Positions 17,514 through 45,238 of a DNA stretch of 45,396 nt are shown piece after piece. The stretch is taken from positions 1 through 45,396 of IMG/VR virus record IMGVR_UViG_3300033148_007463; one strand, given 5' to 3'. Position 1 is the stretch's first letter; every line of letters begins with the position of its first letter. Source of the DNA: a virus. Below the pieces are notes generated by a model that saw nothing but the letters and a program-made list of their open reading frames with translations, was not told where the DNA came from and searched no databases. The translations under genes and the position numbers were made by a program.

Positions 17514-17514
17514 A

Positions 17515-20601: not shown

Positions 20602-20603
20602 AA

Positions 20604-21839
20604 ATGCCAGAAGATAAAATCCGTATTCTTTCGTTTGGAGATAATCCAAAAATGAGCACAGGGTATGGTTGTGTCTGGGATAACCTTTTAACCAGATGGG
20701 CTAAACTTAAACCTAACTGGGAGTTTATGCACGTTGGTTGGCAGAATACTGACAGGCCACACAAAAGAGCAGAAGGATATACAATGCTTCCACGATCAAA
20801 AAATGGTTGGGGATTTGATATAGTTGCAAATTATTTAATGAAGCACAAACCAGACATTTTGATTACCTTAGCAGATATAGGAAAACAATCAGGATTTATT
20901 CCAGGAGTTAATAATGCAAGAAAATCTGGTTGGAAAGGAAAATGGATTATGTATTCTCCTATTGATTGTCATCAGTGGGCATTGCATTGGGATGAAATAC
21001 TAATGGCTTCTGATGTGAATGTGGCTATGTCTAATTTTGGTGGAGAACTATTTAAAAGTAGAAATGTTCCAAATGTAAAAATAATTCCTCATGGTGTTGA
21101 TATAAATAAATATAAACCTCTTGAAGATAGAGAACAATTAAGAACCAGATTTGGAATTAATAATAAATTTGTTTTAGGGTTTGTTGGCAGAAATCAAGTA
21201 AGAAAGATGATAGCTTATATGATGAGAGGTTTTGCTAATTTTGCTAAAGGAAAAGATGATGTAGTTCTTTTATTACATACAGATAATATGCCCCCCGGTG
21301 GTGAAGGCAGGGGTTGGGCAATAGATGGCCTTGTTTATAAATATGAAAAAGAAACTGGACAGTGTTTATTTGAAAGCGAAAAAGTAAGGCTTACTGAAAC
21401 TAACATGGATGTTTTAACAAGACAAGGAATTCAACCAGAAAATCTAAATGACATTTATAATTTGATGAATATGCTTGTTTATGCTACAGGGGGAGAAGGT
21501 TTTGGACTTCCAGCAATTGAATGTCAAAGTGCAGGGGTTCCTATTTTAATGTCTGACAACTCAACAGGGCCAGAATTAGCAGGGAAATCTGGAGAGTTAA
21601 TAGATATGCTTAGAGATAAATATGGAAGGATTGTTGGGATAATAGGAACTAATGGTGTAGAAAATCTGGTGCCTGATGATAGACACATAACTTTGCTCTT
21701 AGAAAAATATTATGCTGATTGGAAGGGAGATAAAGAAACATTAAAAGAGATGTCAAAGAAAAGTAGAGAATTTGCATTAACTTATGATTGGGACATTATC
21801 GCTAAACAATGGCTTAAATTATTTGAAGAAAATGTATAA
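20604..21839 (+). CDS. GT-B glycosyltransferase (family 4-like), second copy
   Basis: About 411 residues. A Rossmann start (IRILSFGDNPKMSTGYGCVW) leads to a C-terminal domain with VLGFVGRNQVRKM and the YATGGEGFGLPAIECQSAGVPILMS donor site (E-x7-E). Between them PPGGEGRGWAIDGL is an insertion. It ends by overlapping the terminase start (TAATG). It is the fourth glycosyltransferase of the cassette. ATG 20604 is preferred to TTG 20598 because of the GGAGGGA spacing, but both are possible. Confidence 0.87.
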   Translation: MPEDKIRILSFGDNPKMSTGYGCVWDNLLTRWAKLKPNWEFMHVGWQNTDRPHKRAEGYTMLPRSKNGWGFDIVANYLMKHKPDILITLADIGKQSGFIPGVNNARKSGWKGKWIMYSPIDCHQWALHWDEILMASDVNVAMSNFGGELFKSRNVPNVKIIPHGVDINKYKPLEDREQLRTRFGINNKFVLGFVGRNQVRKMIAYMMRGFANFAKGKDDVVLLLHTDNMPPGGEGRGWAIDGLVYKYEKETGQCLFESEKVRLTETNMDVLTRQGIQPENLNDIYNLMNMLVYATGGEGFGLPAIECQSAGVPILMSDNSTGPELAGKSGELIDMLRDKYGRIVGIIGTNGVENLVPDDRHITLLLEKYYADWKGDKETLKEMSKKSREFALTYDWDIIAKQWLKLFEENV

Positions 21840-27403: not shown

Positions 27404-28204
27404 ATGACATTTATAACACCATTAGAACTCTGGAAGAGTTTAGGAAAAAACTCATATACTAAAGTTAGAAATGAAACTGTAGACACAGGAAATGGAGTAA
27501 ATTCTGCTTTTTCATTAGACCACGAAAATATTATTTCTGGTTCTGATACAATTTATACAGATTCAACTGCTGATTCAACTTATACTATTGATTTAGACGA
27601 TGGAGAATTAACCTTAACTGCAAGTTCTGATTCTGTTATTACTGCAGATTATTCTTATGCTGATGTTCCCGATTCTCATGTTCAAGAAGTCTTAAAAAGA
27701 GCAGACGAATATTTAACTGAATCTGTTGGAAGACCCTTTGCTACAACTTCAGAAACTGAATATATAGATGTAGAAGATGCTGCGCAAGATGAATACTTCC
27801 TTTCCTATTATCCAGTTACTACAATTAGTTCTTTGCAAGTAAATACTAAAAGTAGTTTAGGAGATACTCCTGCATGGAGTTCAAGAACACAAGGATTAGG
27901 AAATGACTTCATAGCAAATTCAGATGATAGAAAAGTTGGAAGATTTAGATGGATAGATAATTTCCCAACATCAAAAGGAAAAGACAGAATTAAAGTAACG
28001 TATATCCATGGATATACTTCAACACCTGAAAGGGTTAAGGAGTTAGCAACCTTATTGGCCCAAAGACAATTAATTCAATCTACTATGTATCAAACTATCT
28101 TTAAAGGAAGAGATGATTCTTCACCGATCAATCTGGACGTAGTCGATAAGAGAATAGAAGAATTAACTCTTAAATTGAAAAAGATGGATATAGAAAAACC
28201 ATAA
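27404..28204 (+). CDS. Head-tail connector (adaptor) protein
   Basis: 266 residues. A beta-rich N-terminal half (NAFSLDHENIIS type repeats, TVDTGNGVNSAFSL) followed by HVQEVLKRADEYLTESVGRPF and RIKVTYIHGYTSTPERVKELATLLAQRQLI, which resemble gp6/gp15-type connector adaptors that sit below the portal. The extra N-terminal domain looks like those in some haloviral and other archaeal connectors. Placement after the capsid gene fits. Confident on role, less on exact family. Confidence 0.72.
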   Translation: MTFITPLELWKSLGKNSYTKVRNETVDTGNGVNSAFSLDHENIISGSDTIYTDSTADSTYTIDLDDGELTLTASSDSVITADYSYADVPDSHVQEVLKRADEYLTESVGRPFATTSETEYIDVEDAAQDEYFLSYYPVTTISSLQVNTKSSLGDTPAWSSRTQGLGNDFIANSDDRKVGRFRWIDNFPTSKGKDRIKVTYIHGYTSTPERVKELATLLAQRQLIQSTMYQTIFKGRDDSSPINLDVVDKRIEELTLKLKKMDIEKP

Positions 28205-28205
28205 A

Positions 28206-30434
28206 ATGAAAAAAAATATATTAGTTATTTGGGGAATTATTTTAATTGCTTTAATAGTTTTAGTTATGGCTGCTGATTTCACTCCTCAAGGAAATATCAA
28301 TTTAAGAGAAAGATATAATATTACTTATGTTACTGATATAAATCCTGAAGGAACACCTTTGACAATTGGAGCAAACATGACTATTCTTGATAAGATAACT
28401 TTTAGACTTGGAGAGATTATTGATAATCTTGTTGATGGATGGATAAGAATTACAGGAAATCTGAATGTGACAGGGAATGTAACAGCAGAGCATCTTGAGG
28501 GAAATTTGTCTTGGGATTATTTAGATACTTATCCTGTTGCATGTCCTGAAGGAACTTATTTAACCGAGCTTGGGGATTCAGTTATTTGCACATCTATTTC
28601 TGCAGCAGATCATGATAATTTAACAGTAGGAAATCTAACTGCAGGGCAATTATTTTATGGGGATACGAGAGGAGATTTTAATGAAACAAATGTTAGTAGA
28701 CCATTTACAAGTAGAAATGATATTTCAGTTACTGTATGTTCTTCTGGGTGTGATTATCCAACAATTCAAGATGCAGTGGATCAAATCCCTTACATTTTAA
28801 GACATGAATATGATATAGAAATAGGTGCAGGAACTTATGAGGAAGATGTTTATATTCCACCAATAATTAATTCACAGACTCATTCAACAGAAGGAAGTTG
28901 CTGTGCGGTTGATATAAGTGGAACTGCAACTATTGATGATGTAAAAGTAAAATCATTTCATGTTACCAGTGCCATTGGAACTTGGGTTTTACAAATTCAT
29001 CACATGAATATTTATGGGACAGAACCTCGTTCAGATGAATCTGTATCTCTTTCAATTTATGGTAGTAATTCAGTTTTAGTTAGGCATTTAAATATGACAA
29101 ATAGGAGTGTAAATTACCCAATTATGTTTTATTCAAGTAATGGTGGTGCACATACGATTAATTTTGATGAAACTAAAAATGGATTTTATGTAAAAGGAAC
29201 CTCTGCTGTATATTTAGGGGATTATTATGGTGATGGAAAATTGTATGGTTCTGTTGATGGAGTTATTGTAAAAGCTGGTAAAGGGACATTAACACATATC
29301 CAAAATAATCAGGTAATAAGAGGGGGAGAACTTATGAGTGGGGTAGGGGTTGTTAGTGAATATAATAATGTAACAACAAAAAATACTTATTATAAAATGG
29401 ATATTTTAGATGGAGAGGTAAATATTACAGGAGATTTAATCTCAGATACAATTCATGAAGTTTCAAAAGAATCTTTACTTTTTGATATGAATTTTAATAC
29501 TGAGAATACAAATGGAAATAATGTTTTAGATGGATCAACTAAGAATAATCATGGAGTAAATAGTGGAGCAACTCTCAATACAACTGGGAGTTTTAATGGG
29601 GGGGCATATTATGACTTTGATGGAGATAATGACGAAATAGATTTACAAAATAAAATAATTAATACCTCTAAAGACTATACAATTAGTTTATGGTTATATA
29701 AAAACGAAAGAGCAGATGATGTTTATTTTATTCAAGGGCAAGAGGGACAAAATTTTAATTATGTAGATATAGCAATTAAAGGATATACATCTGATGATAA
29801 AATATATGTTCTTGTTGGAAATGGATTAGGAGGTTACTTTTTAAATGATAAAGTAGGTATTACTACAATCCAAGAATGGCATCATATTTTGGTAACAAAA
29901 AATGGGACTACCTATACTGTTTATGTAGATAGTGTTCGTAAAGGGTCGCTGGAATCAACAGGAACTTTAAATCAAGGAGATAGAAGTAATTTGGGTCAAA
30001 CTTTAACAGGAGGTGGTGATTTTAATGGTTCTTTAGATGATATAAAAATTTATAATAGGCGATTAAGTCAGGCAGAAATAAGTGCATTATATCTTCAAAG
30101 AGTAGAATCTGCAGATTCTTATGTTTCTCAAAAATATATTCAAGTTGATACAAGTGGAAATGTGAATATAACTTCAGGAAACCTAACCCTCACACAAAAA
30201 ATAACCTTCGCTCTCGGAGAAATAATAGATAACCTGGTCGATGGATGGATCACAATCACAGGGAATTTAAATGTTACAGGAAATGTAACAACAGGAGGAG
30301 ATTCTTTTATCCAATTAGAAATGAACACAACAGGATTAACTTGCAATGAAGCAAATGCAGGAGCAATTTATTATAATAATGATACAAATAAACATTATGG
30401 TTGTAATGTTACAGCTTGGCAGGAGTTATACTAA
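28206..30434 (+). CDS. Large secreted beta-helix/LamG surface protein with internal duplication
   Basis: 742 residues starting with a signal or anchor segment (NILVIWGIILIALIVLVMAAD). Then a first ITGNLNVTGNVTAEH motif, a pectate-lyase-like region (CDYPTIQDAVDQIPY, GAGTYEEDVYI), a LamG-like concanavalin domain (TISLWLYKNERAD, WHHILVTKNGTTYTVYVDS, GSLDDIKIYNRRLSQAEISALY), and a second copy of the first motif near the C-terminus (DKITF/QKITF, GEIIDNLVDGW). Many N-X-S/T sites. It resembles DPANN surface proteins and may be a spike, adhesin or surface cover rather than a normal tail protein. Function not certain. Confidence 0.7.
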   Translation: MKKNILVIWGIILIALIVLVMAADFTPQGNINLRERYNITYVTDINPEGTPLTIGANMTILDKITFRLGEIIDNLVDGWIRITGNLNVTGNVTAEHLEGNLSWDYLDTYPVACPEGTYLTELGDSVICTSISAADHDNLTVGNLTAGQLFYGDTRGDFNETNVSRPFTSRNDISVTVCSSGCDYPTIQDAVDQIPYILRHEYDIEIGAGTYEEDVYIPPIINSQTHSTEGSCCAVDISGTATIDDVKVKSFHVTSAIGTWVLQIHHMNIYGTEPRSDESVSLSIYGSNSVLVRHLNMTNRSVNYPIMFYSSNGGAHTINFDETKNGFYVKGTSAVYLGDYYGDGKLYGSVDGVIVKAGKGTLTHIQNNQVIRGGELMSGVGVVSEYNNVTTKNTYYKMDILDGEVNITGDLISDTIHEVSKESLLFDMNFNTENTNGNNVLDGSTKNNHGVNSGATLNTTGSFNGGAYYDFDGDNDEIDLQNKIINTSKDYTISLWLYKNERADDVYFIQGQEGQNFNYVDIAIKGYTSDDKIYVLVGNGLGGYFLNDKVGITTIQEWHHILVTKNGTTYTVYVDSVRKGSLESTGTLNQGDRSNLGQTLTGGGDFNGSLDDIKIYNRRLSQAEISALYLQRVESADSYVSQKYIQVDTSGNVNITSGNLTLTQKITFALGEIIDNLVDGWITITGNLNVTGNVTTGGDSFIQLEMNTTGLTCNEANAGAIYYNNDTNKHYGCNVTAWQELY

Positions 30435-30757
30435 TGACAGATAAAAAAACAATCGGAATAAGTAGTTTGATCGCGATAGGGTTAGTTTTAGCTTCAATGA
30501 TTGGACCAACATATTTTGATACTCCTAAATTTTATTGTGAGGCTGAAAGCAGTATTATGGAATGTCCTGGAGAATTAAGTGGAGGATTAGGAACCAGATG
30601 TTATTTGAATGAAGAAAAAACGAGTTGGGATTATTGCAGTTCTGGTTGGATAGAGATAACCAATGACATGATTATTCAAGAGGAACCAACAAATCAAATA
30701 CCTTCTGGATTAATAAAATATAGTTGTGATCAAAAGGAATGTATTAGGATTAAATAG
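30434..30757 (+). CDS. Small membrane-anchored Cys-rich protein, 107 aa
   Basis: Begins with a charged stretch then a hydrophobic helix (IGISSLIAIGLVLASMIGP, residues about 7-25). The outer part has eight cysteines (FYCEAESS, CPGE, RCYLNEE, YCSSGW, SCDQKEC), probably paired by disulfides. The ATG at 30434 overlaps the previous stop (TAATG). Probably displayed on the cell or virion surface with the preceding gene product. Function unknown. Confidence 0.6.
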   Translation: MTDKKTIGISSLIAIGLVLASMIGPTYFDTPKFYCEAESSIMECPGELSGGLGTRCYLNEEKTSWDYCSSGWIEITNDMIIQEEPTNQIPSGLIKYSCDQKECIRIK

Positions 30758-30780
30758 CCGAAGGCAAGATTTTATCGAAG

Positions 30781-31464
30781 ATGAAAACATATAATGGAAC
30801 TGGTGGAAATTGTAATGGTAGTTCTGGAGATTCAAACAGAGTTCTAACTTTATTAAACACAAAAAAAACAATACAAGATGGAATGTTAGTTTATGTTAGT
30901 GGATTGGCTTTAGCTCTTAATATTGAATATACTGTTTCTCATAAAGTTACAGGAACAGAAATTACTTTTTTAAATGGTTTATGGGATGATATGACTATTG
31001 TGGTTAGTTATGATGAAACTGGAGGAGGAAATTTAACTGATAATAGTTCATTATTTTCAGCAAGTTATGATGCACTTGAAGATTTCTTAAAAAATAATAT
31101 TTCTGACCCAAAAAACAGACATAAAGTAAATTGGATTCATGCAAGTTTTCCAAATATAAATGCTATGTCTTTTGAGGGCTATCCTTTTATTACATTAAAA
31201 GTTAATTTGAATGAAACAAATCCTGCATTTGATAGAACTAAATCTCAAAAGAACTTTAGAGCAATTATTACAATTTATTCAGACCAACCAACAGAAATAG
31301 AAACTATTTGTGATAAGATTGGAGAATTATTCAGAGATGAAAATAAACTAACAGATTTTGATGCAAGAGATTTATCTTCTTCTCCTATTAGTTGGACATT
31401 AGATCAAAAAGGAAAGAAAGTTTTATTTAGGGAAATAAATTTAGACTTGAGGGTGAGAATATGA
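30781..31464 (+). CDS. Tail terminator or completion protein
   Basis: 227 residues. The start has an unusual N-terminal extension (TGGNCNGSSGDSNR; ITFLNGLWDD) and the rest looks like tail terminators: ASYDALEDFLKNNISDPKNRHKVNWIHASFPN, ITLKVNLNETNPAF, NFRAIITIYSDQPTEIETICDKIGELF. Its position after the connector and surface genes and before the gp10-like gene fits the head-tail joining set. The 14 bp leader ATTTTATCGAAGAT lies just before the ATG, as before the connector gene. Confidence 0.6.
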   Translation: MKTYNGTGGNCNGSSGDSNRVLTLLNTKKTIQDGMLVYVSGLALALNIEYTVSHKVTGTEITFLNGLWDDMTIVVSYDETGGGNLTDNSSLFSASYDALEDFLKNNISDPKNRHKVNWIHASFPNINAMSFEGYPFITLKVNLNETNPAFDRTKSQKNFRAIITIYSDQPTEIETICDKIGELFRDENKLTDFDARDLSSSPISWTLDQKGKKVLFREINLDLRVRI

Positions 31465-31616
31465 AAAAGGAAAAAGATACAAAAGATACAAAAGTTGATG
31501 ACATCACTGGTGACATTGAAGATGACATTTTTGATGCAGATGAAGTTATTGAAGAAGTAAAAGAAAGAGTAGAAGATAAAACAAGACATGCAACCTTTTA
31601 TCCAAGAACAAGATGA
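31461..31616 (+). CDS. Small acidic protein, 51 aa
   Basis: Overlaps the preceding stop (ATGA) and the next start (ATGA). Rich in Lys, Asp and Glu: DITGDIEDDIFDADEVIEEVKERVEDK, then a basic tail ATFYPRTR. It is probably a disordered or coiled structural accessory in the head-tail region. No family recognised. Confidence 0.5.
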   Translation: MKKEKDTKDTKVDDITGDIEDDIFDADEVIEEVKERVEDKTRHATFYPRTR

Positions 31617-32032
31617 GATTAAGAATAAATCAAAGAGTATTGAAAGACATAGCAAGGATTAGAGCAAAGCTACAAATAGCAGCGCAAGACATTAAAACAG
31701 ATACTCAAAATAAAATACAAGAAGTAGGAATGTTAGGATTTAATTTTGCTTATAATTTAGCACCAGAATTTACAGGTGCATTAAAACAAGCAATGAGATT
31801 TGAAATGCCAAGTATGAATGAATTTTTGATTATTTCATCTCAACCAGTAGGGGATCCAATTCCAACTCATGTATTATTTGATTTAGGATTATATCCAAAT
31901 CCAAGAGTAGCAAGTAGTTTAGGCTTTATGAAAAAAACTGCATTATTTTTACAACAAGAATTTGCACAAAGATTAGGTTTAGTAATTCACCGTGATATTG
32001 AAAAGATAGGTAAACAGGGAGGTATAAAATAA
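31613..32032 (+). CDS. HK97 gp10-like tail completion protein
   Basis: 139 residues: a helical start (QRVLKDIARIRAKLQIAAQDIKTDT), then APEFTGALKQAMRFEMP, and GFMKKTALFLQQEFAQRL at the end, as in the gp10/gpFII-like proteins that join head and tail. The acidic gene overlaps its start. The order connector, terminator, gp10-like, tube fits tailed phages. Confidence 0.75.
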   Translation: MRLRINQRVLKDIARIRAKLQIAAQDIKTDTQNKIQEVGMLGFNFAYNLAPEFTGALKQAMRFEMPSMNEFLIISSQPVGDPIPTHVLFDLGLYPNPRVASSLGFMKKTALFLQQEFAQRLGLVIHRDIEKIGKQGGIK

Positions 32033-32033
32033 A

Positions 32034-32611
32034 ATGGCTGATGCATTAACAAAAAATCAAGGTTGGTTTGACCATACTTATATTGAAGTCGTTTCTGAAG
32101 GTGGAACTGCTGTTCAAATGAGAACTAAAACCACAAGTTTAAATGTTACTGGTGGAAATTTCGATATGGAAAGTAATGAAACTTTTGGTGGAGCAATAAA
32201 AAGATATGGTGCAAGAGAAGACTTTGAAATTGGTTTTGAAGGAATAGTTAGAAGTCATCAAGATTTTGATTGGATATTTCATGGAGCAACACAAACAGAT
32301 ACAAGTATTACAAGTAGTTCTGTATTAGATTATAGAGTTACTTTGCTTTGGACTGATGAAAGTGGTATTACTGCAGCATCTCAAGCAATTGCTACTGCGA
32401 GTGAAGCATATAGAGAATACTATGCAGAATGTAATTTAGTTAGTTTAGAAAAATCACAAAATGTTGGCGAAAATATTACTTTACTGCTACTCTTACATTT
32501 AAAACAGCATTTGAAGATAATAGTGGAACTATAAACTTCAAGCAAGAAGTTTGTGGAACTGATAGTGCTTTAAGTGCTGCAAGTTCGTATACGTCTACGA
32601 CCAAATGGTGA
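32034..32611 (+). CDS. Major tail tube protein, reading frame interrupted near 32480
   Basis: The uninterrupted frame runs 32034-32534 with a tail-tube start (HTYIEVVSEGGTAVQM, TSLNVTGGNFDMES, FEIGFEGIVRSHQDFDWIFHGA). Its last 23 residues become a Leu-rich nonsense tail. In the -1 frame from the TTT at 32480-32482 the protein continues naturally (FTATLTFKTAFEDNSGTINF, ending SSYTSTTKW at the stop 32609-32611). Adding one T to the TTT run would give the seamless NITFTATL. So the true product is probably about 192 residues. Either a real mutation or a sequencing or assembly indel. Confidence 0.75.
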
Positions 32612-32615
32612 TTTG

Positions 32616-32791
32616 ATGGAAGAATTTGTTGAGAACATAAAAGATTTGAGAACGACTAATTTTAAAGTCACAAAAATTCCAGTCTGGGCTCTCAAGAAAT
32701 TCAAAATTCTTTAAGTAAAGACATAGACAACCTACAGAAACAGATTGATAACTTAAAAGAAAAAAATAAATCAACAACATTCGGAGAATGA
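32616..32791 (+). CDS. Small coiled-coil protein, frame interrupted near 32690
   Basis: An ATG frame 32616-32714 (MEEFVENIKDLRTTNF, then KVTKIPVWALKKFK) ends early, while the -1 frame from about 32690 continues as a coiled coil (QEIQNSLSKDIDNLQKQIDNLKEKN) to a TGA at 32789-32791 that overlaps the next ATG. A single protein of about 58 residues would result from a -1 shift. A TAA at about 32660 in the -1 frame means the shift must lie after it. No clear slippery heptamer is present, so a base-call error is as likely as programmed frameshift. Confidence 0.45.
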
Positions 32792-33072
32792 GCAAACTAT
32801 CAAACCTTTTAGGAAAGTCCAAGACTTTTAAGATTGGAGATTTAGATTTGGAATTAAAGCCACTTCGATTTGAGCACATGGATTTGCTTGCAAAGTTAGA
32901 TAATCCAGAAACTCGAATAGAGGGAATGAGAGAAATAATTAAAATTACTCTCAAAGAAGCAGTTCCAGATGCAACAGATGAGGAAATAGAAAAATTAGGA
33001 ATAACTTATCTTATGCAAATCTCAAATGCAATCGCAAAAGTAAACGGATTAAATGAAACCAAAAAAGATTAA
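32788..33072 (+). CDS. Tail assembly chaperone, first ORF (G-like)
   Basis: 94 residues with a short N-terminal strand part (FKIGDLDLELKPLRFEHMDLLAKL) and helices (EGMREIIKITLKEAVPDATDEEIEKLGITY), as in tail assembly chaperones. It precedes the second small ORF and the tape measure, the standard chaperone position. Overlaps the coiled-coil gene stop (ATGA). Confidence 0.65.
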   Translation: MSKLSNLLGKSKTFKIGDLDLELKPLRFEHMDLLAKLDNPETRIEGMREIIKITLKEAVPDATDEEIEKLGITYLMQISNAIAKVNGLNETKKD

Positions 33073-33250
33073 AGATTTAATGTCTCAAGGAAATCTTGAT
33101 GATAAAATAGTGACAATTATAGATAGGCTCATGTTGTTTAGACATCAACCTTATTCTGAAATATTAAAAATGCCAATACCTCTAATAGAAAAAATTATGA
33201 AAAGAATAGATAAACAAATTGAAAGGGAGAATAAAGCATTTAAGAAATAA
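33053..33250 (+). CDS. Tail assembly chaperone, second ORF (T-like) in the +1 frame
   Basis: 65 residues, basic and helical (IIDRLMLFRHQPYSEILKMP; KIMKRIDKQIERENKAFKK). It overlaps the preceding ORF by 20 bp in the +1 (or -2) frame. Across the overlap lies the run CCAAAAAAGATT (A6 at 33061-33066). Tailed phages make gpG and gpGT by frameshifting at this place; here either an ATG re-start at 33053 or a shift on the A6 run could produce it. The one-base overlap with the tape measure start supports coupling. Confidence 0.6.
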   Translation: MKPKKIKDLMSQGNLDDKIVTIIDRLMLFRHQPYSEILKMPIPLIEKIMKRIDKQIERENKAFKK

Positions 33251-34473
33251 TGGCAACTGAAGATATAATTATTCGTGGAAGAGCAGAAATGGATGAGATA
33301 GATAAAGCGTTAGCTATCACTGGGCAATCTCTTAATCAATTCAACAAACAATTAAACAAAAACTTTATGCAGATTAATAAGAATAGGCAGGTAGTAGATA
33401 AATTTACAAATAATTTAGTTGATGTTGGACAGGCAGCAAAAAAAGCAGCAATTATGGGAAGACGTTTCAAAATGGAATGGCTTTCTATTATGTTTGCGGG
33501 AATGGCGCTTGATAGAGCATTTGGTGGATTAATAAGAACTCAAATGCAATTATTTGGTGTAACAGATATGATGAGTAGTGCTTGGACAATAGTTTTATTG
33601 CCTATAATGGAATTACTTACCCCTATTCTCTATAAATTAATTGATGCATTTATGAATTTATCTCCTGGAATGAAGTTAGCAGTAGGTGCTGGAATTTTAT
33701 TTTTGGCTGTTGCTGGAAAAATTATGTTAGTTGTTGGACAAATATTTTTGGGGATAATGGGATTTAAATTATTATTTCCCGTAGCTTTTAAGGCTATGGC
33801 TGGGGGCGCAGGGGCATTTCTCGCAGCATTAGCACCAATAGTTTTAGTAATTGGAGTGATAATTGCTTTGGCGACAGCCATCTATCTTGCTTGGAAAACT
33901 AATTTTATGAATATAAGGTCAAACATTAAAGCATTTGCCGAATCAGTAAAGAATGTTTTTAGGGGATTTATACAGATGATTAAAGGTGTATTAAATATAA
34001 TCAAAGGAATTTTTACAGGAGATTTTGAATTAATTAAGAAAGGAATTGTTCAAACTTTTAAGGGGTTGGCTATGCTTCTTTTGAATATCTTTAGGGTATT
34101 AGGAAATGGAATTGTTATAATTTTTAAAGGAGTTGTTAAATTAATTTGGAATGTTTTTAAGGTTGTTGTAGATGCTATTCTTTGGGCAGCAGATAAAGCA
34201 CATAAATTCTTTGGTGGGAAAGGAATTAAGTTTCGTATGCCAAAATTTCAAACAGGTGGATTAGTAACTCAAACAGGCCCAGCAATATTACATAGAGGTG
34301 AAAGAGTAATACCAAAAAACAGAGTAAATAGAGAAGGAATAACCTTTTCTCCAACAGTTGTAATGACTGCCTCAATAAATAATGATATGGATGTAAGAAT
34401 ATTGGCAGAAAATTTAAATAGATATTGGAGCCGTGATTTTGAAAGATTACTAAAAGGGAGGGGAAGTTATTAA
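33250..34473 (+). CDS. Tape measure protein (short)
   Basis: 407 residues: helical N-terminus (LNQFNKQLNKNFMQINKNRQVVDK), a strongly hydrophobic centre with several membrane-like helices (WTIVLLPIMELLTPILYKLI; LAVGAGILFLAVAGKIMLVV; GVIIALATAIYLAW), repeated amphipathic helices with 'IKG', and a soluble C-terminus (GGLVTQTGPAILHRGERVIP). The hydrophobic core and position are typical. At about 1.5 angstrom per residue a tail of roughly 60 nm is expected (siphovirus, short). Confidence 0.85.
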   Translation: MATEDIIIRGRAEMDEIDKALAITGQSLNQFNKQLNKNFMQINKNRQVVDKFTNNLVDVGQAAKKAAIMGRRFKMEWLSIMFAGMALDRAFGGLIRTQMQLFGVTDMMSSAWTIVLLPIMELLTPILYKLIDAFMNLSPGMKLAVGAGILFLAVAGKIMLVVGQIFLGIMGFKLLFPVAFKAMAGGAGAFLAALAPIVLVIGVIIALATAIYLAWKTNFMNIRSNIKAFAESVKNVFRGFIQMIKGVLNIIKGIFTGDFELIKKGIVQTFKGLAMLLLNIFRVLGNGIVIIFKGVVKLIWNVFKVVVDAILWAADKAHKFFGGKGIKFRMPKFQTGGLVTQTGPAILHRGERVIPKNRVNREGITFSPTVVMTASINNDMDVRILAENLNRYWSRDFERLLKGRGSY

Positions 34474-34970
34474 TGGCAATTAGTTTAAATATGACAATAC
34501 CTGCAAGTAGTTGGTATCAAAATACAGGGTCTCAAACAATTACAATTCATGGGGCAAATAATTTTATAATGAATACTAAAAAGAGTTTAATAAAAATTCA
34601 AGTGCCTCAAAGTGCTGCGACTATTGCTTCTAATCCAACAGACCAAGCTAAAAATTATGTAAAAGATTTAAAAAGAGTGGAAGATACAATGAAAATAAGG
34701 GGTTGGTTAATTGATACTACGAATTCTTCTGCATGGGAACAAGCTTGGCAATTAAGAGGAATGTGTGCGTCTGGAGGACCAATAACAGAATTAATCGTAG
34801 ATAATCTTACTTTTAGTTCAGCAACTCAAACTGCATTTTTAGAAGAAGTAAATTTTGTTGTAAATCCAACAAGGACTCTACAATTAGATATAGCAGATAC
34901 ATCTTCTGCAAGTATGAATACTGCAAGAGTAGAAGTGGATTTAGCATTTTATTTGGGGGATGAGAGATAA
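34473..34970 (+). CDS. Distal tail or baseplate protein
   Basis: 165 residues, beta-rich (WYQNTGSQTITIHGANNFIMNTKKSLIKIQV; MKIRGWLIDTTNS). A short DxxNY pattern and position right after the tape measure and before a large hub protein fit a distal tail (Dit-like) adaptor. The ORF starts at the last base of the tape measure. No sequence signature fixes the family, so the call is by order. Confidence 0.5.
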   Translation: MAISLNMTIPASSWYQNTGSQTITIHGANNFIMNTKKSLIKIQVPQSAATIASNPTDQAKNYVKDLKRVEDTMKIRGWLIDTTNSSAWEQAWQLRGMCASGGPITELIVDNLTFSSATQTAFLEEVNFVVNPTRTLQLDIADTSSASMNTARVEVDLAFYLGDER

Positions 34971-37435
34971 TGGCAGCTTCTGGTGTAGCAAATAAAAATA
35001 CTTTTTGGGTTAATAACGCTGGAACATGGGTAGAGTTTAATCACTATGATTATTTTGAAGTAAAGAAAAAACAAAATCAAATTAGTGAATTTGAAGTAAA
35101 AGTATTTGATATTTCAACAGCACAAAAAGCTTATTTCAAAGAACAAAGTGAAGTTTTATTTTTTGCAGGAACTACAATGATTCTAAAAGGAAGAATCCAA
35201 AACATTGAATATGCCTCTGCGTTTGAAACTATTGCGAGAGGTTATGGGATGGAATCTAAACTTCTTGATAAACAATTTATTAAAGCTGGTGATAATCGTG
35301 TTCAATATACAAACGAAAGTGCTCAAACCGTTGCTCAAGAAATAAATGGAGACATTTTAACTACTGCAAGTTCTGGTTTATGGGATACAGATTTTGGGAA
35401 TGTAAATCTAAGATTTGAACATGCAAATAGACTCAATGCCTTAGGTAAATTAGCTGAAGCTATTGATTATAATTGGTGGGTAAGTCAAACTTCCTCTGAT
35501 GATTATGATACAGATTATATTCATTTAGATAGCAATCAAGGAGAAACTTCTTCTCAAAAAACTTATAATTTAACAAGTAGTATGATAAAAAGTAAACAAG
35601 AAAAAGATATAACTAACTTAGTAAATTATGTTTATGCCCTCGGTTACGGAGATGGGATTAATCAGATTTCAACAAGTTGTTATGCTGCCTCTACTCAAAG
35701 CAGTTTTGTTGATACTAATATAAATGCTACCACAACCTCTATTTTAGTTGCTGATGGCTCTGTATTTGATGCTACAGGCTCTGTTAGAATAGCAAAAGAA
35801 ATAATAACTTATGCAGGGATTAATTCAGATACATTAACAGGTTGCACAAGAGGAGTTGGAACTACTGCAAAAGCTCATAATAGAAATTGTTATATTGAAC
35901 AACATTATACTACTGATTCTGCTCAAACTGGGTCCTCTATTCAAACCTATGGTTTAATGGACCATACTTTAATTGATAAAACTATAATTGATGAAGAAAC
36001 CCTTGAAGTCATTGCTTCTGGATATTTGTCTGATAGAAAGACCCCTATTTTAAGAATTACAATTACTCCAGACGAACCTTTAGCTGACGCAAGTCTAAAT
36101 ATTGGAGATAATGTAACTATCACAGATAGTGAAAGCGATATAGATGATTCTTATAGGATTGTTGGACAAACTTATAGAAGTGATTATGGAAATTTAACTT
36201 TACAAACAGAAGTAAGCAATAAAAGTTTAGAATTTATTGAACAGATGAATAAATCTAAACAAGATGCAGAAGCTATGGCTAAATATATGCAAGGTGCAAC
36301 TAATATTTATGCAATTCATGAATCAGAAAATCTTGATGTAAATACTCCTTTAGATATGAGATTTTACATTCCAAATGAAGCAGTGGCAATTAATTCTGTT
36401 AAACTAAATTTTAAACAAAAAGGTTGGAGAAGTTATGGAGATTATCAAATTGAGGAACAAGATTTATTAAATCCTTTTACTGTAATTTCTATTGGAGAAG
36501 ATGAATCTGAAAGTTTAATAAATGTATCTCAATCTGGAACTCCAACTTCTGCAACAGATAGTTCACTAACTGATACTAATTCGTCTTTTGGAACTTCAAG
36601 TGAATATGATGGATATTGTGTTAAAATCACTGGTGGAACAGGAATAGACCAATTAAAAGTTATTGAAACTCATAGTGATACAGTTCTTTATTTAACTTCT
36701 TCACAATTTTTTGATACAATTCCAGACACTACAAGTAATTATGCAATTGTAATGCCTTACACTTCATCTCAAACAGATTTAGATTTAACAAGTGAAGTAG
36801 ATGCGATTGGGATAGGCAAATGGGCAAATATAAAATTTGAAAATGCAGGTGGGATAGAAACATATGATAATTATGAAGATTTAACAGTAAATACAAATAA
36901 GTGGACTACTGCATCAAGCCATCAAGATGCTTGTGATAGTAGTGGAGTAGATGAAACTGCAGATTATATTCGGGCTTGGGCTCATAAACCAGCAACTGGG
37001 GGTGCTGAAGCATATAGACATAATTGTTCAGTGGCCACAAAAAATCTTCCAAACTTAGAAGATATGGAACAAATTCAATTTAGGATGGTTACTGTAGATG
37101 CCCCAGGAGGGTCCTATCCACCAGATGGATATGAACTAACAATTTTTGGAAATGTTGTATGGAATAGTGTAGTAGGAGTTGATGATGATATTGTTTTTAA
37201 AGCAATTAAAAAAAGTGATGGAGATTGGGATATATATCAAGATGATGTATTTGATCAAACTATAACCCCAACAGATAATATCATAAAAGTAAAAACACAA
37301 AAAGATGATGTAGACACAAAATCTGTTTTAGAACAGCAATTTGAAATTAGAATTTATGAAGTAGGGCTTGGAGGTAGAGCAAGAATGAGAATTGAAGCAG
37401 ATGCCTACGTCCAGACGTTCCTTGAAAGTAAGTAA
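34970..37435 (+). CDS. Tail hub/tip protein with C-terminal beta domain
   Basis: 821 residues. Residues 1-400 resemble the baseplate hub (gp27/Tal-like): FEVKKKQNQISEFEVKVFDIS, GRIQNIEYASAFETIARGYGME, QTVAQEINGDIL, then a QGETSSQKTYNLTSSMIKSKQEKD region, and NIGDNVTITDSESDIDDSYRIVGQTYRSDY. From about 430 on, a lectin-like beta part (FYIPNEAVAINSVKLNFKQKGW) and a second C-terminal beta domain follow, with Cys pairs (DYIRAWAHKP...HNCSV). It probably penetrates or binds the host surface. Catalytic domain not found. Confidence 0.7.
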   Translation: MAASGVANKNTFWVNNAGTWVEFNHYDYFEVKKKQNQISEFEVKVFDISTAQKAYFKEQSEVLFFAGTTMILKGRIQNIEYASAFETIARGYGMESKLLDKQFIKAGDNRVQYTNESAQTVAQEINGDILTTASSGLWDTDFGNVNLRFEHANRLNALGKLAEAIDYNWWVSQTSSDDYDTDYIHLDSNQGETSSQKTYNLTSSMIKSKQEKDITNLVNYVYALGYGDGINQISTSCYAASTQSSFVDTNINATTTSILVADGSVFDATGSVRIAKEIITYAGINSDTLTGCTRGVGTTAKAHNRNCYIEQHYTTDSAQTGSSIQTYGLMDHTLIDKTIIDEETLEVIASGYLSDRKTPILRITITPDEPLADASLNIGDNVTITDSESDIDDSYRIVGQTYRSDYGNLTLQTEVSNKSLEFIEQMNKSKQDAEAMAKYMQGATNIYAIHESENLDVNTPLDMRFYIPNEAVAINSVKLNFKQKGWRSYGDYQIEEQDLLNPFTVISIGEDESESLINVSQSGTPTSATDSSLTDTNSSFGTSSEYDGYCVKITGGTGIDQLKVIETHSDTVLYLTSSQFFDTIPDTTSNYAIVMPYTSSQTDLDLTSEVDAIGIGKWANIKFENAGGIETYDNYEDLTVNTNKWTTASSHQDACDSSGVDETADYIRAWAHKPATGGAEAYRHNCSVATKNLPNLEDMEQIQFRMVTVDAPGGSYPPDGYELTIFGNVVWNSVVGVDDDIVFKAIKKSDGDWDIYQDDVFDQTITPTDNIIKVKTQKDDVDTKSVLEQQFEIRIYEVGLGGRARMRIEADAYVQTFLESK

Positions 37436-37467
37436 CAATAAATAAATAGAATATTCATAGAATCAAA

Positions 37468-37647
37468 ATGATAAAAAAATATATTAAAAAACATTGGGAT
37501 AGTGGATTTGATTTTTTCCTCGCCGTAGGGCAAGGAATAATCTTCACATTTAGCATGATAGGAATAGGAATCAAAACCTATGAAGGAATTAAAAAAATAA
37601 GAGAAAGAAAAGCAAAAGAAAAAAGAGGTGTCATAATATTAAAATGA
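37468..37647 (+). CDS. Single-membrane-span small protein, 59 aa
   Basis: One hydrophobic helix (FFLAVGQGIIFTFSMIGIGI, about residues 16-36) between basic ends (MIKKYIKKHW; KKIRERKAKEKR). ATG at 37468; the TGA overlaps the next start (ATGA). With the next two genes it forms a run of membrane proteins after the tail tip, possibly lysis or entry factors. Confidence 0.55.
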   Translation: MIKKYIKKHWDSGFDFFLAVGQGIIFTFSMIGIGIKTYEGIKKIRERKAKEKRGVIILK

Positions 37648-37838
37648 ATAACGGACTTGATATCACGGAAGAACAATTCATGAAAATGAATTCAAAAGAA
37701 AGAGATTTAATTACTTTTAGAAATCTAACTCACATTAGAAAAAAACTTAAAGACTATTCATTTCATAGAAAGATACAATATACGTGGCTATTTGTATTAA
37801 CTATAGCTTTAGGATTTAGAAAGTTTTTACCTTTATGA
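37644..37838 (+). CDS. Small membrane protein, 64 aa
   Basis: A soluble charged first half (MNSKERDLITFRNLTHIRKKLKDYSFHRK) and one C-terminal hydrophobic segment (YTWLFVLTIALGF) ending in RKFLPL. Overlaps both neighbours by 4 bp. Not a known holin family. The three-gene membrane run and position after tail genes suggest lysis or membrane interaction. Confidence 0.5.
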   Translation: MNNGLDITEEQFMKMNSKERDLITFRNLTHIRKKLKDYSFHRKIQYTWLFVLTIALGFRKFLPL

Positions 37839-38026
37839 TGGCATATAAATTAAGTATAGGTGTGTTGAAATCTGTGAAGAACACAGCAATCGTAATGGGA
37901 ATTCCTGCATTAGTTCTTTTGTTGGACAATTGGACTCAATGGATTCCAGAAGAATATCATAAGATTGCTTTGCCGATTATTGGATTGATAGCATACTTTA
38001 TCAAGAATTACATTCAAAATAAATAA
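37835..38026 (+). CDS. Holin-like two-span membrane protein, 63 aa
   Basis: Two hydrophobic helices (TAIVMGIPALVLLLDNW and IALPIIGLIAYFIKNYI) with a short turn WIPEEYHK, as in small phage holins. ATG at 37835 or 37838 (MM). No endolysin is found near it, which is not surprising for an archaeal virus whose envelope is not peptidoglycan. Role remains inference. Confidence 0.5.
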   Translation: MMAYKLSIGVLKSVKNTAIVMGIPALVLLLDNWTQWIPEEYHKIALPIIGLIAYFIKNYIQNK

Positions 38027-38039
38027 TCAGGAGGTTAAA

Positions 38040-38306
38040 ATGGATGTTGAAAAACTTTTAGCAGAGGTAAGTCGCTCTGACTGGGGTGGGCACCCTGTTA
38101 GCTCTTTAAGGCCTCATTTAGTTGAGCTTTATAGTTTAATTAAATGGTTCTTTGAGAAGACTACAAATGAATATTTAGGACAGAATGAATCAAGTGTTTT
38201 GAAAAGTATCAAAACAGATAATGTTCCAAAAGTGTTTAGAGAAGTCTTACTTAAAGCTGAACAAGCTGGCAAAAACAGGCCAAATGTAATTAAAGCATTA
38301 GAATAA
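38040..38306 (+). CDS. Hypothetical soluble protein, 88 aa
   Basis: Strong ribosome site CAGGAGGTTAAAATG. Helical protein (MDVEKLLAEVSRSDWGG; ELYSLIKWFFEKTTNEYLG; VPKVFREVLLKAEQAGKN). No domain known. Sits between the membrane gene run and a promoter. Confidence 0.6.
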   Translation: MDVEKLLAEVSRSDWGGHPVSSLRPHLVELYSLIKWFFEKTTNEYLGQNESSVLKSIKTDNVPKVFREVLLKAEQAGKNRPNVIKALE

Positions 38307-38319
38307 TTTTATGTAAAAA

Positions 38320-38400
38320 AATAAGATTATTTATATAGTTTGAAGTGTATATTAAATTGTGTAGTGAGGTGTCTGGTTCTCCTGCACTTTAAATACGTAA
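38320..38400 (+). promoter_or_regulatory. Promoter region for the late surface genes
   Basis: Two TATA boxes: TTTATATAG (38330-38338) would give a leader of about 50 nt, and CTTTAAATA (38388-38396), centred about 26 bp before the ATG at 38419, would give a leaderless mRNA from the second of two in-frame ATGs (38413/38419). The start of the next protein may thus be MGKHRG. Confidence 0.55.
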
Positions 38401-38412
38401 AATCAAAAGACA

Positions 38413-38664
38413 ATGGTAATGGGTAAACATCGCGGAGATAGAGAATACGAAAAGTTTGTTGAAACACAAGGTGGCTTGACAGCGATTCGAGTTTCTTCTG
38501 TAAATTCGTTAGTGCCTAAAGATTTTGATTCTATGGTTTTAACTTATTCAGGTTCAAATGTTACTACAATTAAATATTATGTTGGGGGCGTAACAGGAAC
38601 GTTAGTAGCCACATTAACACTAACATATTCTGATTCAAACGTTACTTCAATAGTTAGAACTTAA
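38413..38664 (+). CDS. Small beta-rich protein, 83 aa
   Basis: Basic start (GKHRGDREYEKFVETQGG) followed by repeated strand pairs with a 'YSGSNVT' or 'YSDSNVT' motif repeated twice (SMVLTYSGSNVTTIKYY, TLTLTYSDSNVTSIV). Resembles the small beta proteins (often carrying such pairs) found beside phage tail fibres. It contains two N-V-T sequons. Probably a virion accessory. Confidence 0.5.
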   Translation: MVMGKHRGDREYEKFVETQGGLTAIRVSSVNSLVPKDFDSMVLTYSGSNVTTIKYYVGGVTGTLVATLTLTYSDSNVTSIVRT

Positions 38665-38685
38665 ATTAAATTATAGGAGGTTAAA

Positions 38686-39135
38686 ATGGAAGAAAACATT
38701 GGTTTACAGGGCACATTTAGAGTATCTGTATTAGGAAAAGATAATGAAGTGAAAGCTGATTTTGGTGTTCCTAACACAGTTATGAATGCTGGAAAAGCAG
38801 TAGTTTCTGGATTAATGCTAAGTGATGTCGGTGAAGATGCATTTGATTATATAGCAATTGGAACAGATGCAACAGCACCAAACGCAACTCAGACAGCTTT
38901 AATTGCTGAGGTTTATCGTTCTGCAGGAACAGGATCGCAAGAAACTACAACTGTTACAGATGATACTGCAAGATTGACTACAAGCATAGCGATTACTTCA
39001 AGTGTAAGTATTCAAGAAGCAGCTGTTTTTAACAGTTCAAGTGCAGGAGATATGTTAGCAAGATCTACTTTTAGTGCAGTCTCTGTCAATAATGGAGACA
39101 CCATCAACATAGGTTATGATAATGTTGTGAGTTGA
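38686..39135 (+). CDS. Tail fibre-like or virion structural protein, 149 aa
   Basis: Strong ribosome site TAGGAGGTTAAAATG. All-beta protein with IAIGTDATAPNATQTALIAEVYR, the 'AIGTGATAP...T.L..EV.R' pattern known from phage fibre-associated structural proteins, then repeated strands ending in INIGYDNVVS. Followed by a large LamG protein. Probably part of the tail fibre or baseplate. Confidence 0.6.
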   Translation: MEENIGLQGTFRVSVLGKDNEVKADFGVPNTVMNAGKAVVSGLMLSDVGEDAFDYIAIGTDATAPNATQTALIAEVYRSAGTGSQETTTVTDDTARLTTSIAITSSVSIQEAAVFNSSSAGDMLARSTFSAVSVNNGDTINIGYDNVVS

Positions 39136-39149
39136 TTCCATGTTCTCAA

Positions 39150-41123
39150 ATGAGAATTTACTGGGAAAGCTTAAAAAAATGGGGATTAAAAATAGGAATA
39201 CCTGTGGGTATTTCTGGTTTTGCTCTTCTATTTTACTATCTTATTTTTATTGAAGCAATAATAGTTAGTGGATACTCTGGAGACATGGTTTGTTCAGGAA
39301 CACCTGAAGATCCTTGTTTTGCTTATATTAATTTTACTGTAAAAGAGGATATATTTCTTTATCCTGTTGGTTATGATCCTTGGGGAAGGGATACTCCTTT
39401 TTCTACAGATAAAGGATTGAAGTCCTGGAAGATGTATCGAAGTTGGGGTAAGGGCTGGAGAGAAATAAAACTTGATAAAACCTGCACAGGAACTTGGTGT
39501 GGGGCTCCAAACAATCTTGGAGTAAAATATTCTTTTGTTTTTAGAGAAGGGAGAGATTACCAAATTAAAATTGAAGCCTTAAAAAATAATCCTAATGAGG
39601 ATATTAAGTGGGGATTTGGACCTGTAGACCCAACTTGGTATGGAAAAGATTGGGTTTCAGAAGCTCTTTTAACAAATGTGACAGCAGAAACAGGAGTTTC
39701 TAATTTTACTCACTTAAATATTTCAACAACAGCACCTTATGATGATTTACTTTTTTATCTTAGTTTTGATGGTGATGCAGAAGATACAAAACTAACTACT
39801 CATTATGATTTTGGAAGTCTTAAACTTGATGGAACTGGTGTAGATGATGCCGTGGTTAATTCTTCTACTTGCTTACCTAATTTTGGAGATTGTTTACAAT
39901 TAGATGGAACAGGAGATTATGTTTCTTTAGGGGATACAAATGTATTTGATGTTGATTTTACAGAAACTAATATTTCAATTAGTACATGGATTTATACAAG
40001 AGAGGAAGATGATTATTTACCTATATTTATTTCAAATGATAATGATGGGGTTTATTTGGGATATTGGTTAGCAACTTGGGAAGCAACAAATAGTGTTTGG
40101 TTAAGTGTTGGTGATGGGACAGGAACTGGTTCAGCAGATAGGAGAGGAATTCTTAGTGATACTGCTATAAGTCCAGACCAGTGGTATCATGTTGTAGGAA
40201 TTATTAGAAATGTTACTGATATGGATATTTATATTAATGGTAATTTAGATGGAGAAACTGAAACTGGAACTGCAACTACTATTGATTATAGTGTGGTGAG
40301 ATATCCTGTTATTGGAAGAACAAGACATTCTACTTTAGATGATGAATGGAATGGTATGATTGATGAATTTATGATTTTTAATAAAAGTTTATCAGCAACA
40401 GAAGTTTCTGATATTTATAATAATCAATCAGCAAGATTTGTTGGAACTGGTAAACAAGAATTAAACAACCAATCTTATTTAGATTTGACAGGAGATTATG
40501 TAAATGTTACAACAACATTTGATAATAATTTTAGAAGTAATGTTAGCTTGTTTTTACAATATTATAGTGGTGGAAGTTGGACTTCAACATCTGCTCAAAA
40601 TATAACTTCTGGAGTAAATGCAAGTTTTGATATTGGTTCTGATTTTACAAACTTAACTTTAAACTATTCTTTAATAGCTGGAAATGTATCAAATCCTTTT
40701 TACACTCCAATTATTTTTGGAGATATAAATATTTGGAATCATACAATAGGGGTTGGGGAAGCAGATATAGATTACTCAGTGGCTGTTCCTTTAGATTTAA
40801 TTAGATTTGGAAATTGTTCTCCTGATTTTGAAAATGCAGATTCTCGTCCTATTGGACAAGATGTAATAGTTGGAGCAATAAATGCTACAAATACCGGTGG
40901 AGCCACAGGAGATTTCACGATAAATTTAACAGGGGCTTTAAATCCTGGTTGGACAATTTGGGCATCTAATGATAGTTTAGTGCATAATATTACTCTAACT
41001 ACAACTGCACAAACAATTTGGTCTGATGTTACTGCAGGAACTACTAAAAAAATATGGTTAGCAGGGAATTGTTCATTTATTTCAGCAAATCCTGGACAAA
41101 GTATTTCCATGTGGGTGGCATAA
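39150..41123 (+). CDS. Membrane-anchored LamG surface protein
   Basis: The ATG at 39150 gives MRIYWESLKKWGLKIG and then one hydrophobic segment (FALLFYYLIFIEAIIVSG), an N-terminal anchor or signal. The outer part has a Cys-containing beta domain (CSGTPEDPC; CTGTWC), a LamG-like domain (LSFDGDAED, ISTWIYTREEDD, QWYHVVGIIRNVTDMDIYINGNLDG, DEFMIFNKSLSATEVSDIY) and a C-terminal beta region. More than a dozen N-X-S/T sites. Like the 28206 protein it looks like a DPANN-style surface protein; either a virion spike or a host-surface modifier. Confidence 0.68.
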   Translation: MRIYWESLKKWGLKIGIPVGISGFALLFYYLIFIEAIIVSGYSGDMVCSGTPEDPCFAYINFTVKEDIFLYPVGYDPWGRDTPFSTDKGLKSWKMYRSWGKGWREIKLDKTCTGTWCGAPNNLGVKYSFVFREGRDYQIKIEALKNNPNEDIKWGFGPVDPTWYGKDWVSEALLTNVTAETGVSNFTHLNISTTAPYDDLLFYLSFDGDAEDTKLTTHYDFGSLKLDGTGVDDAVVNSSTCLPNFGDCLQLDGTGDYVSLGDTNVFDVDFTETNISISTWIYTREEDDYLPIFISNDNDGVYLGYWLATWEATNSVWLSVGDGTGTGSADRRGILSDTAISPDQWYHVVGIIRNVTDMDIYINGNLDGETETGTATTIDYSVVRYPVIGRTRHSTLDDEWNGMIDEFMIFNKSLSATEVSDIYNNQSARFVGTGKQELNNQSYLDLTGDYVNVTTTFDNNFRSNVSLFLQYYSGGSWTSTSAQNITSGVNASFDIGSDFTNLTLNYSLIAGNVSNPFYTPIIFGDINIWNHTIGVGEADIDYSVAVPLDLIRFGNCSPDFENADSRPIGQDVIVGAINATNTGGATGDFTINLTGALNPGWTIWASNDSLVHNITLTTTAQTIWSDVTAGTTKKIWLAGNCSFISANPGQSISMWVA

Positions 41124-45231: not shown

Positions 45232-45238
45232 TAAAATG
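45221..45238 (+). repeat. 18-bp start-site repeat, copy 2
   Basis: GGGATTTATAATAAAATG contains the end and stop of the 36-aa gene and the ATG of the repeat protein. Together with 45106-45123 and 222-239 it marks three successive genes. Confidence 0.8.

What the first reader, a model, noticed from the sequence alone, without database searches (positions are those of the whole stretch)
28206..41123. Virion region with host-style, membrane-anchored glycoproteins
Proteins at 28206, 30434 and 39150 start with signal or anchor helices and carry LamG/beta-helix domains with many N-X-S/T sites, a style known from DPANN cell surfaces. Such leaders are not normal for cytoplasmically assembled tails. 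They may decorate the infected cell, block superinfection or be extruded spikes, and could be targets of the viral glycan genes.
Basis: partly seen in the sequence, partly recalled or inferred. Interest (0 to 1): 0.7.

Follow-up and report, generated by a model that had tools for sequence, protein, structure and literature searches.

The report
Viral surface glycoproteins inside tail operon
A tailed virus of an uncultured, probably archaeal host carries, in the middle of its tail-building genes, genes for proteins that look exported and sugar-coated; they belong to two undescribed families that recur at fixed places in dozens of related viruses, so they look like a common but unstudied tool these viruses use at the cell surface.

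Summary
The core observation holds for two of the three proteins. 28206 (signal peptide, LamG, 24 N-X-S/T sites, 11.4 expected) and 39150 (N-terminal anchor, LamG, 24 sites, 8.2 expected) look like exported N-glycoproteins; signal-less tail proteins beside them are at chance. 30434 has an anchor but no LamG and no sequon. "Host-style" is not supported. After its membrane helix 39150 carries an undescribed ~127-residue beta-sandwich module found on 29 IMG/VR contigs, but in 84,980 GTDB species only as one fragment in a chimeric contig. It has no Pfam, PHROG or PDB relative and a conserved cytosolic tail. 28206 belongs to a second family (signal peptide + "DFTPQGNINLR") that follows the head-tail adaptor gene in 12 contigs. 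Both sit inside head/tail operons at recurrent slots, with N-glycosylation sites about 2-fold enriched. A relative whose contig ends overlap (G012) lacks them but keeps the sugar genes, so they are accessory. Best reading: late-made, virus-specific glycoproteins displayed on the infected cell, plausibly masking receptors against superinfection or progeny re-adsorption. The exported topology is well supported by sequence; the function is inferred. A virion-borne role is not excluded.

The parts
28206..30434 (+). Secreted glycoprotein: signal peptide (residues 1-22), 'DFTPQGNINLR' leader family, weak beta-helix region, LamG (29619-30083), 24 sequons, 8 Cys
30434..30757 (+). Small (107 aa) N-terminally anchored Cys-rich protein; no sequons; relatives beside 28206-like or other secreted genes, or beside the tail terminator gene, in other viruses
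39150..39194 (+). Conserved cytosolic N-terminal tail of the anchored glycoprotein (MRIYWESLKKW...)
   Evidence: mean commonest-residue frequency 0.74 over residues 1-12 in 23 homologues
39195..39263 (+). Transmembrane signal-anchor helix, probably uncleaved
   Evidence: hydropathy; alignment
39264..39644 (+). Virus-specific ~127-residue beta-sandwich module with two conserved Cys pairs
39645..41123 (+). Variable ectodomain: LamG (39903-40409) plus C-terminal domain; 23 of the protein's 24 sequons lie here
27404..28204 (+). Head-tail adaptor (phrog_442), upstream border of slot A
   Evidence: adaptor homologues upstream of 28206-like genes
30781..31464 (+). Putative tail terminator (residues 88-227) with an extra 87-residue N-terminal domain, downstream border of slot A
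33250..34473 (+). Tape measure protein
   Evidence: phrog_991 E 3.9e-15
34970..37435 (+). Tail-tip/hub-like protein; slot B lies just upstream of the hub
   Evidence: phrog_4311 E 7.3e-26 (named minor head protein) and gene position; role inferred
38686..39135 (+). Signal-less fibre-like protein directly upstream of the anchored glycoprotein (slot C)
   Evidence: phrog_5417 E 2.3e-19, phrog_4176 tail fiber E 1.3e-7; same neighbourhood in G001, L072, L076
41124..42521 (+). Signal-less repeat fibre-like protein downstream (slot C), no Cys, sequons at chance
9445..21839 (+). Viral glycan-synthesis cluster (sugar-nucleotide, glycosyltransferase-like, LicD, CTP_transf, radical SAM genes)
   Evidence: mostly kept in G012 without the glycoproteins

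Best explanation
28206 and 39150 are late-operon, virus-specific glycoproteins exported by the host Sec pathway and shown on, or released from, the infected cell. 39150 is held by an uncleaved N-terminal anchor: cytosolic tail, one membrane helix, beta-sandwich stalk, then an exchangeable LamG-type lectin head. 28206 is signal-peptide secreted and in other viruses its family is often made from the gene next to the anchored one, so the two may form a pair. Both are probably N-glycosylated by the host. Their heads resemble those of tail fibres, so they most likely occupy or mask surface glycans, giving superinfection exclusion and stopping progeny from re-adsorbing to the producing cell or its debris. 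Shown by sequence: leaders, topology signature, sequon excess, virus-specific families, recurrent operon slots, head exchange. Inferred: late expression, display on the cell, glycosylation, receptor masking.
For: Leaders and topology. N-X-S/T 815 vs 351 expected (2.32x) in module proteins and 2.19x in other large SP/TM proteins, against 1.2x in signal-less ones; Q/D/K/E/G-X-S/T are at 0.80-1.03x. Conserved Cys pairs in the module, with Cys75 and Cys80 lost together in L079; four neighbouring signal-less proteins have no Cys at all. Module on 29 viral contigs, with only one fragment on a chimeric contig in 84,980 genomes. Accessory: absent from G012, whose contig ends overlap by about 137 bases; 28206+30434 are absent from the same slot in G001, whose capsid and terminase are about 90% identical. 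Between the window and G001 the N-terminal 170 residues of 39150 are 84% identical and the ectodomain that follows is not similar. LamG, MAM, DUF2341 and beta-helix heads in related proteins.
Against: Tight embedding in head-tail genes at recurrent slots, and a conserved cytosolic tail, also fit a virion or assembly role. In slot-B viruses L050, L066 and L068 no signal-less fibre gene was seen in the part of the tail operon downstream of the tape measure. No expression, proteomic or infection data. The haloarchaeal tailed virus HFTV1 showed no superinfection exclusion at adsorption (PMC9973310).
Confidence: 0.42

Rival explanations
1. They are virion components: the anchored protein's cytosolic tail docks a neck or tail-tip protein at the membrane, and the virion leaves carrying externally made glycoprotein spikes that serve as adhesins.
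For: Conserved synteny: 28206-like genes follow the head-tail adaptor in 12 contigs with little or no spacer; module genes lie just after the tape measure and one small gene in 7 contigs, before an annotated hub gene in four of them. Cytosolic tail conserved above the membrane helix (0.74 vs 0.55). Tailed haloarchaeal virus HRTV-DL1 has glycostained structural proteins and a nine-sequon attachment protein (PMC10384203).
Against: Export before assembly has no precedent known to me in tailed viruses. The genes are absent from G012, and the window virus already has signal-less fibre-like proteins (38686, 41124).
Confidence: 0.25
2. They act at exit: late membrane-anchored and secreted proteins that weaken or remodel the S-layer so that virions can leave.
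For: Structural operon position, membrane anchor, glycan-binding and beta-helix domains.
Against: No recognised hydrolase or holin-like domain; head domains vary and are lectin-like; no known lysis relative.
Confidence: 0.1
3. They are adhesins that change contacts of the infected cell with other cells, for example a symbiotic archaeon with its host.
For: Lectin-like heads and wholesale head exchange.
Against: Host and its lifestyle unknown; nothing here separates this from masking.
Confidence: 0.1
4. They are recently captured host surface genes (morons) with host function.
For: Accessory and variable; LamG and beta-helix domains also occur in cellular proteins (LamG control genomes).
Against: The anchored module is virus-specific in the collections searched, recurs at the same slots in divergent viruses, and has no Pfam relative.
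Confidence: 0.06
5. The hydrophobic N-termini are not export signals; these are ordinary cytosolic tail spikes and the sequons are chance.
For: Some siphovirus tail proteins, such as the tape measure here, have hydrophobic segments.
Against: N-specific sequon excess concentrated in leader-bearing proteins; even Cys counts in the three leader proteins; the LamG-like stretch in the signal-less tail-tip protein of G007 goes with sequons at chance.
Confidence: 0.04

Closest known systems
ConA1/ConA2 lectin proteins of Thermococcales spindle-shaped viruses (PMC12934983, preprint)
   Same: Virus-encoded proteins with predicted transmembrane helices and ConA-like lectin domains that are gained, lost and replaced between relatives
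   Different: Spindle-shaped viruses, not head-tailed ones; those proteins are conserved core genes. Here the proteins are accessory, carry their own N-terminal module and lie inside head/tail operons. No direct sequence comparison was made
Phage-encoded superinfection-exclusion or surface-conversion proteins (for example T5 Llp, phi80 Cor; from memory)
   Same: Virus-encoded, exported, act at the producing cell's surface, accessory
   Different: Those are small and bacterial; no homology tested or seen
HRTV-DL1 ORF24 attachment protein (PMC10384203)
   Same: Archaeal tailed virus, suggested host-attachment protein with nine sequons, possible glycoprotein
   Different: Only 9 sequons against 24 here and up to 81 in homologues; whether it has a leader was not examined
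Laminin_G_3 (PF13385) domain proteins, also reported in magroviruses (PMC10160649)
   Same: LamG domains in archaeal virus genomes
   Different: In the passages read, the magrovirus paper names the domain only; anchor, module and operon slot are not described there

Membership tests
Sec-exported N-glycoproteins | N-terminal signal peptide or signal anchor | tested here: met
   hydropathy and alignment; a dedicated predictor was not available
Sec-exported N-glycoproteins | Excess of N-X-S/T over composition, specific to N | tested here: met
   28206, 39150 and homologues; not met by 30434 (0 sequons)
Sec-exported N-glycoproteins | Glycan actually attached | not testable with these tools
   needs glycoproteomics
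Laminin_G_3 (PF13385) | Score above Pfam gathering threshold | tested here: met
   76 and 87.9 bits vs 27.6
Pectinesterase-type beta-helix in 28206 | Score above Pfam gathering threshold | tested here: not met
   21.3 bits vs 27
DPANN/host surface proteins | Module shared with cellular genomes | tested here: not met
   only a piece of one chimeric contig in 84,980 genomes; pattern search, so divergent relatives could be missed, and 28206 itself was not searched there
DPANN/host surface proteins | Virus infects a DPANN archaeon | not tested
   no host genome or CRISPR spacer link was obtained
Superinfection-exclusion proteins | Expression blocks adsorption or entry of related virus | not testable with these tools
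   experiment needed
Virion structural proteins | Present in purified virions | not testable with these tools
   no isolate
Virion structural proteins | Present in all complete relatives (core) | tested here: not met
   absent from G012, whose contig ends overlap; IMG/VR itself classes it linear
Immunoglobulin-like/cupredoxin-like folds (module) | Clear structural match | tested here: inconclusive
   AF2 pLDDT 90.9; best VIA Z 6.8 (4pi0_A, rmsd 2.6, 94 aligned); Foldseek no E <= 0.001

The most novel reading that the evidence does not exclude
Some tailed archaeal viruses build part of their tail or neck from a membrane-anchored glycoprotein that is first exported and glycosylated and then docked to the virion through its conserved cytosolic tail, so that assembly or exit passes through the cell membrane.
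Probability: 0.15. Interest if true: 0.88.

Novelty: new variant of a known kind. Interest (0 to 1): 0.6.

Why it matters
Two undescribed families of exported glycoproteins, one of them virus-specific as far as could be searched, sit at fixed places in the head-tail operons of many uncultured tailed viruses. They make it testable whether tailed archaeal viruses coat their host cells with lectin-like proteins. If they proved to be in virions, the rule that tailed virions are built wholly in the cytoplasm would need revision. The module profile (A3) can serve as a marker for finding more such viruses.

Tried and rejected
Host capture: genome-contig scans with the module gave one piece, which lies on a chimeric contig of a PVC bacterium. 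The 742-aa 28206 protein as a viral-contig query found nothing; only its leader alignment did. Module in INPHARED phages: none; Pfam, PHROGs, PDB sequence: no convincing relative. Fold searches: only generic beta-sandwich matches, best Z 6.8 to a particulate methane monooxygenase chain, then Ig-type domains. Full-length AF2 of 39150 was uninformative (pLDDT 40.7). Invertible-segment explanation for the antisense portal gene: no long, well-matched flanking inverted repeat. Literature searches found no description of these families; most subscription papers and bioRxiv are not in the library.
Full report
What the window is. The window is itself a virus record (G000, 45,396 bases) encoding a head-tailed virus: a terminase-like protein at 21839 (its relatives were fetched), a portal-like protein at 23518 on the minus strand, a major capsid protein at 26387 (matches to annotated phage major capsid proteins), head-tail adaptor at 27404 (phrog_442), a putative tail terminator at 30781, tape measure at 33250 (phrog_991), tail-tip/hub-like protein at 34970, and fibre-like proteins at 38686 and 41124. 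Its nearest relatives are other IMG/VR contigs, recovered with the terminase, the capsid protein and the tape measure. A chaperonin of the TCP-1/Cpn60 family and the N-glycoprotein style suggest an archaeal host, but neither an archaeal nor a DPANN host is proven here.

Checking the observation. 28206 begins with a classical signal peptide ending MAA|DFTPQG and carries LamG (E 4.7e-21) and a weak beta-helix (Pectinesterase below cut-off; phrog_1627 E 2e-19). 39150 begins with a basic tail and one membrane helix and carries LamG (E 9.8e-25). 30434 has a membrane helix but no LamG and no N-X-S/T. Sequons: 24 vs 11.4 expected in 28206, 24 vs 8.2 in 39150, none of 5000 shuffles as high in either; seven signal-less neighbours are at chance. 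Cys counts agree with export: 8, 6 and 8 in the three leader proteins, none in 27404, 33250, 38686 and 41124. The reversed motif is also high in 28206 (19) but not in 39150 (3), so 39150 is the cleaner case.

The anchored module. The first ~170 residues of 39150 are 84% identical in G001 and 74% in G006, while what follows differs. The soluble part (A2) gave 29 viral contigs in one scan. In 84,980 GTDB genomes two scans gave one hit, 44 residues long, on a PVC-bacterium contig (translation-factor, proline-tRNA ligase-like and other cellular proteins by my reading of the translations) where the piece runs out of frame into unrelated sequence, i.e. an assembly chimera. Both scans depend on short conserved peptides, so divergent cellular relatives could be missed. 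The module has no convincing Pfam, PHROG or PDB sequence relative and none in 50,697 phage records. AlphaFold2 gives a confident beta-strand fold (mean pLDDT 90.9); fold searches give only generic Ig-like and similar sandwich resemblances. Four Cys are invariant or nearly so, and L079 has lost Cys75 and Cys80 together, as expected of a disulphide pair. Across 23 homologues the cytosolic tail is as conserved as the module (0.74 and 0.70) and more than the membrane helix (0.55); conservation stops abruptly after the module (0.18).

The heads. Beyond the module, homologues of up to 2143 residues carry LamG, MAM or DUF2341 domains, or nothing recognised. Sequons over all module proteins: 815 observed, 351 expected, reversed motif 357. 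The excess is specific to N: Q, D, K, E and G in the same position give 0.80-1.03. Other large leader-bearing proteins in these contigs have 2.19x, signal-less ones 1.18-1.23x. LamG by itself is not the cause: the G007 tail-tip protein has an N-terminal stretch similar to the LamG of 28206, no leader, and 11 sequons against 13.3 expected.

The secreted partner. The 28206 leader (signal peptide + DFTPQGNINLR) was found on 17 viral contigs. In the window and eleven further contigs (L060, L061, L074, L089, L090, L091, L093, L094, L096, L097, L101) the gene follows a head-tail adaptor homologue, overlapping it by up to 16 bases or separated by fewer than 40. In L060, L061, L063/L065 and L074 the next gene is the module gene; in L060, L063/L065 and L074 that is followed by the terminator homologue. 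L063 and L065 are near-identical and count as one.

Slots. Module genes lie in slot A (adaptor to terminator: G006, L059, L060, L061, L063/L065, L064, L074), slot B (after the tape measure and one 100-160-residue protein: L050, L056, L058, L066, L067, L068, L069, and a second copy in L059; a hub-type gene follows in L050, L058, L066, L068), or slot C (after a 38686-type fibre-like gene: window, G001, L072, L076, and before a 41124-like gene in window, L072 and L076). In L072 and L076 one further gene lies between. Other module contigs were too short or too divergent to place. The slots hold other host-interaction genes too: G005 has a polysaccharide-deacetylase domain (E 3.6e-15) fused to the terminator, without leader and with sequons at chance. 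In G006 the module is a 186-residue gene of its own, followed by a separate signal-peptide beta-helix gene.

Accessory status. G001, whose capsid and terminase proteins are about 90% identical to the window's, has nothing between adaptor and terminator. G012 (45,894 bases) has contig ends that overlap by about 137 bases, so it is probably complete although IMG/VR classes it linear; it has no module by profile search, no sequon-rich leader protein, and a signal-less 565-residue protein near slot C. G012 keeps most of the window's glycan-synthesis genes, so that cluster is not maintained only for these glycoproteins.

Mechanism. Shown by sequence: leaders, N-specific sequon excess, a virus-specific module, recurrent operon slots, head exchange, dispensability. 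Inferred: late expression (from operon position), host glycosylation, display at the cell surface, and receptor masking. Late timing suits keeping progeny from re-adsorbing to the producing cell or to debris, and excluding competitors; lectin-type heads that change between close relatives suit a target that changes with host glycans. The main doubt is the tight, conserved embedding in tail genes and the conserved cytosolic tail, which would also suit a docked virion spike; three slot-B viruses (L050, L066, L068) show no signal-less fibre gene downstream of the tape measure. HFTV1, an archaeal tailed virus tested for it, showed no superinfection exclusion at adsorption (PMC9973310), so the function cannot be assumed. 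HRTV-DL1 has glycostained structural proteins (PMC10384203), so N-glycans on tailed archaeal virions are not excluded.

Known relatives in kind. Transmembrane ConA-type lectin proteins that are rapidly exchanged are reported for Thermococcales spindle-shaped viruses (PMC12934983), and Laminin_G_3 domains for magroviruses (PMC10160649). I found no report of the module or of the DFTPQGNINLR leader family in the literature available. I therefore class this as a new variant of a known kind (virus-encoded exported surface proteins), with undescribed families and an unusual genomic position.

Limits. Leaders were judged by hydropathy and alignment, not by a trained predictor. All sequences are metagenomic contigs. 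Cellular genomes were searched only twice, only for the module, and only by short patterns; contigs under 3 kb are not held there. The sequon test shows an excess of the motif, not glycosylation itself. Homologues share ancestry, so their sequon excesses are not independent.

Noticed in passing
23270-25170: The portal-like gene is on the minus strand in the window, G001 and G007 but on the plus strand in G002-G006, G011, G012 and G014; no long flanking inverted repeat explains it. In G007 a 38686-like plus 41124-like fibre pair sits antisense beside it.
   Followed up: partly
7456-8853: Virus-encoded TCP-1/Cpn60 family chaperonin (465 aa, E 3e-97), conserved in G001, G006, G007, G012 and G014.
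   Followed up: partly
9445-21839: Large glycan-synthesis cluster (GDP-mannose dehydratase, ThDP enzyme split over two genes, aminotransferase, DUF2061 membrane protein, LicD, cytidylyltransferase, radical SAM/SPASM); mostly conserved in G012.
   Followed up: partly
L005:7614-9221: Tail terminator fused to a polysaccharide deacetylase domain without a signal peptide, possibly a virion-borne neck enzyme.
   Followed up: partly
window 1089, 1831, 9068, 17515; G006 16043-18304; G012 32269: HNH-like small genes recur at many places in relatives; in G006 the terminase frame is interrupted by an insertion carrying one.
   Followed up: no
42629-43204: 191-aa protein with an N-terminal membrane helix and no sequons at the end of the tail module; relatives in G001 (35%) and L050 (29%), function unknown.
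   Followed up: no
L054 about 9850-10345: GTDB contig JADFSZ010000022 of a PVC-bacterium MAG appears chimeric: a piece of the viral module joined out of frame.
   Followed up: yes
window ends 1-160 and 45236-45396: Both ends carry the same AATATTAATGCA-type repeat, with a 27-base exact terminal repeat, so the record may be a circular genome broken in a repeat.
   Followed up: partly
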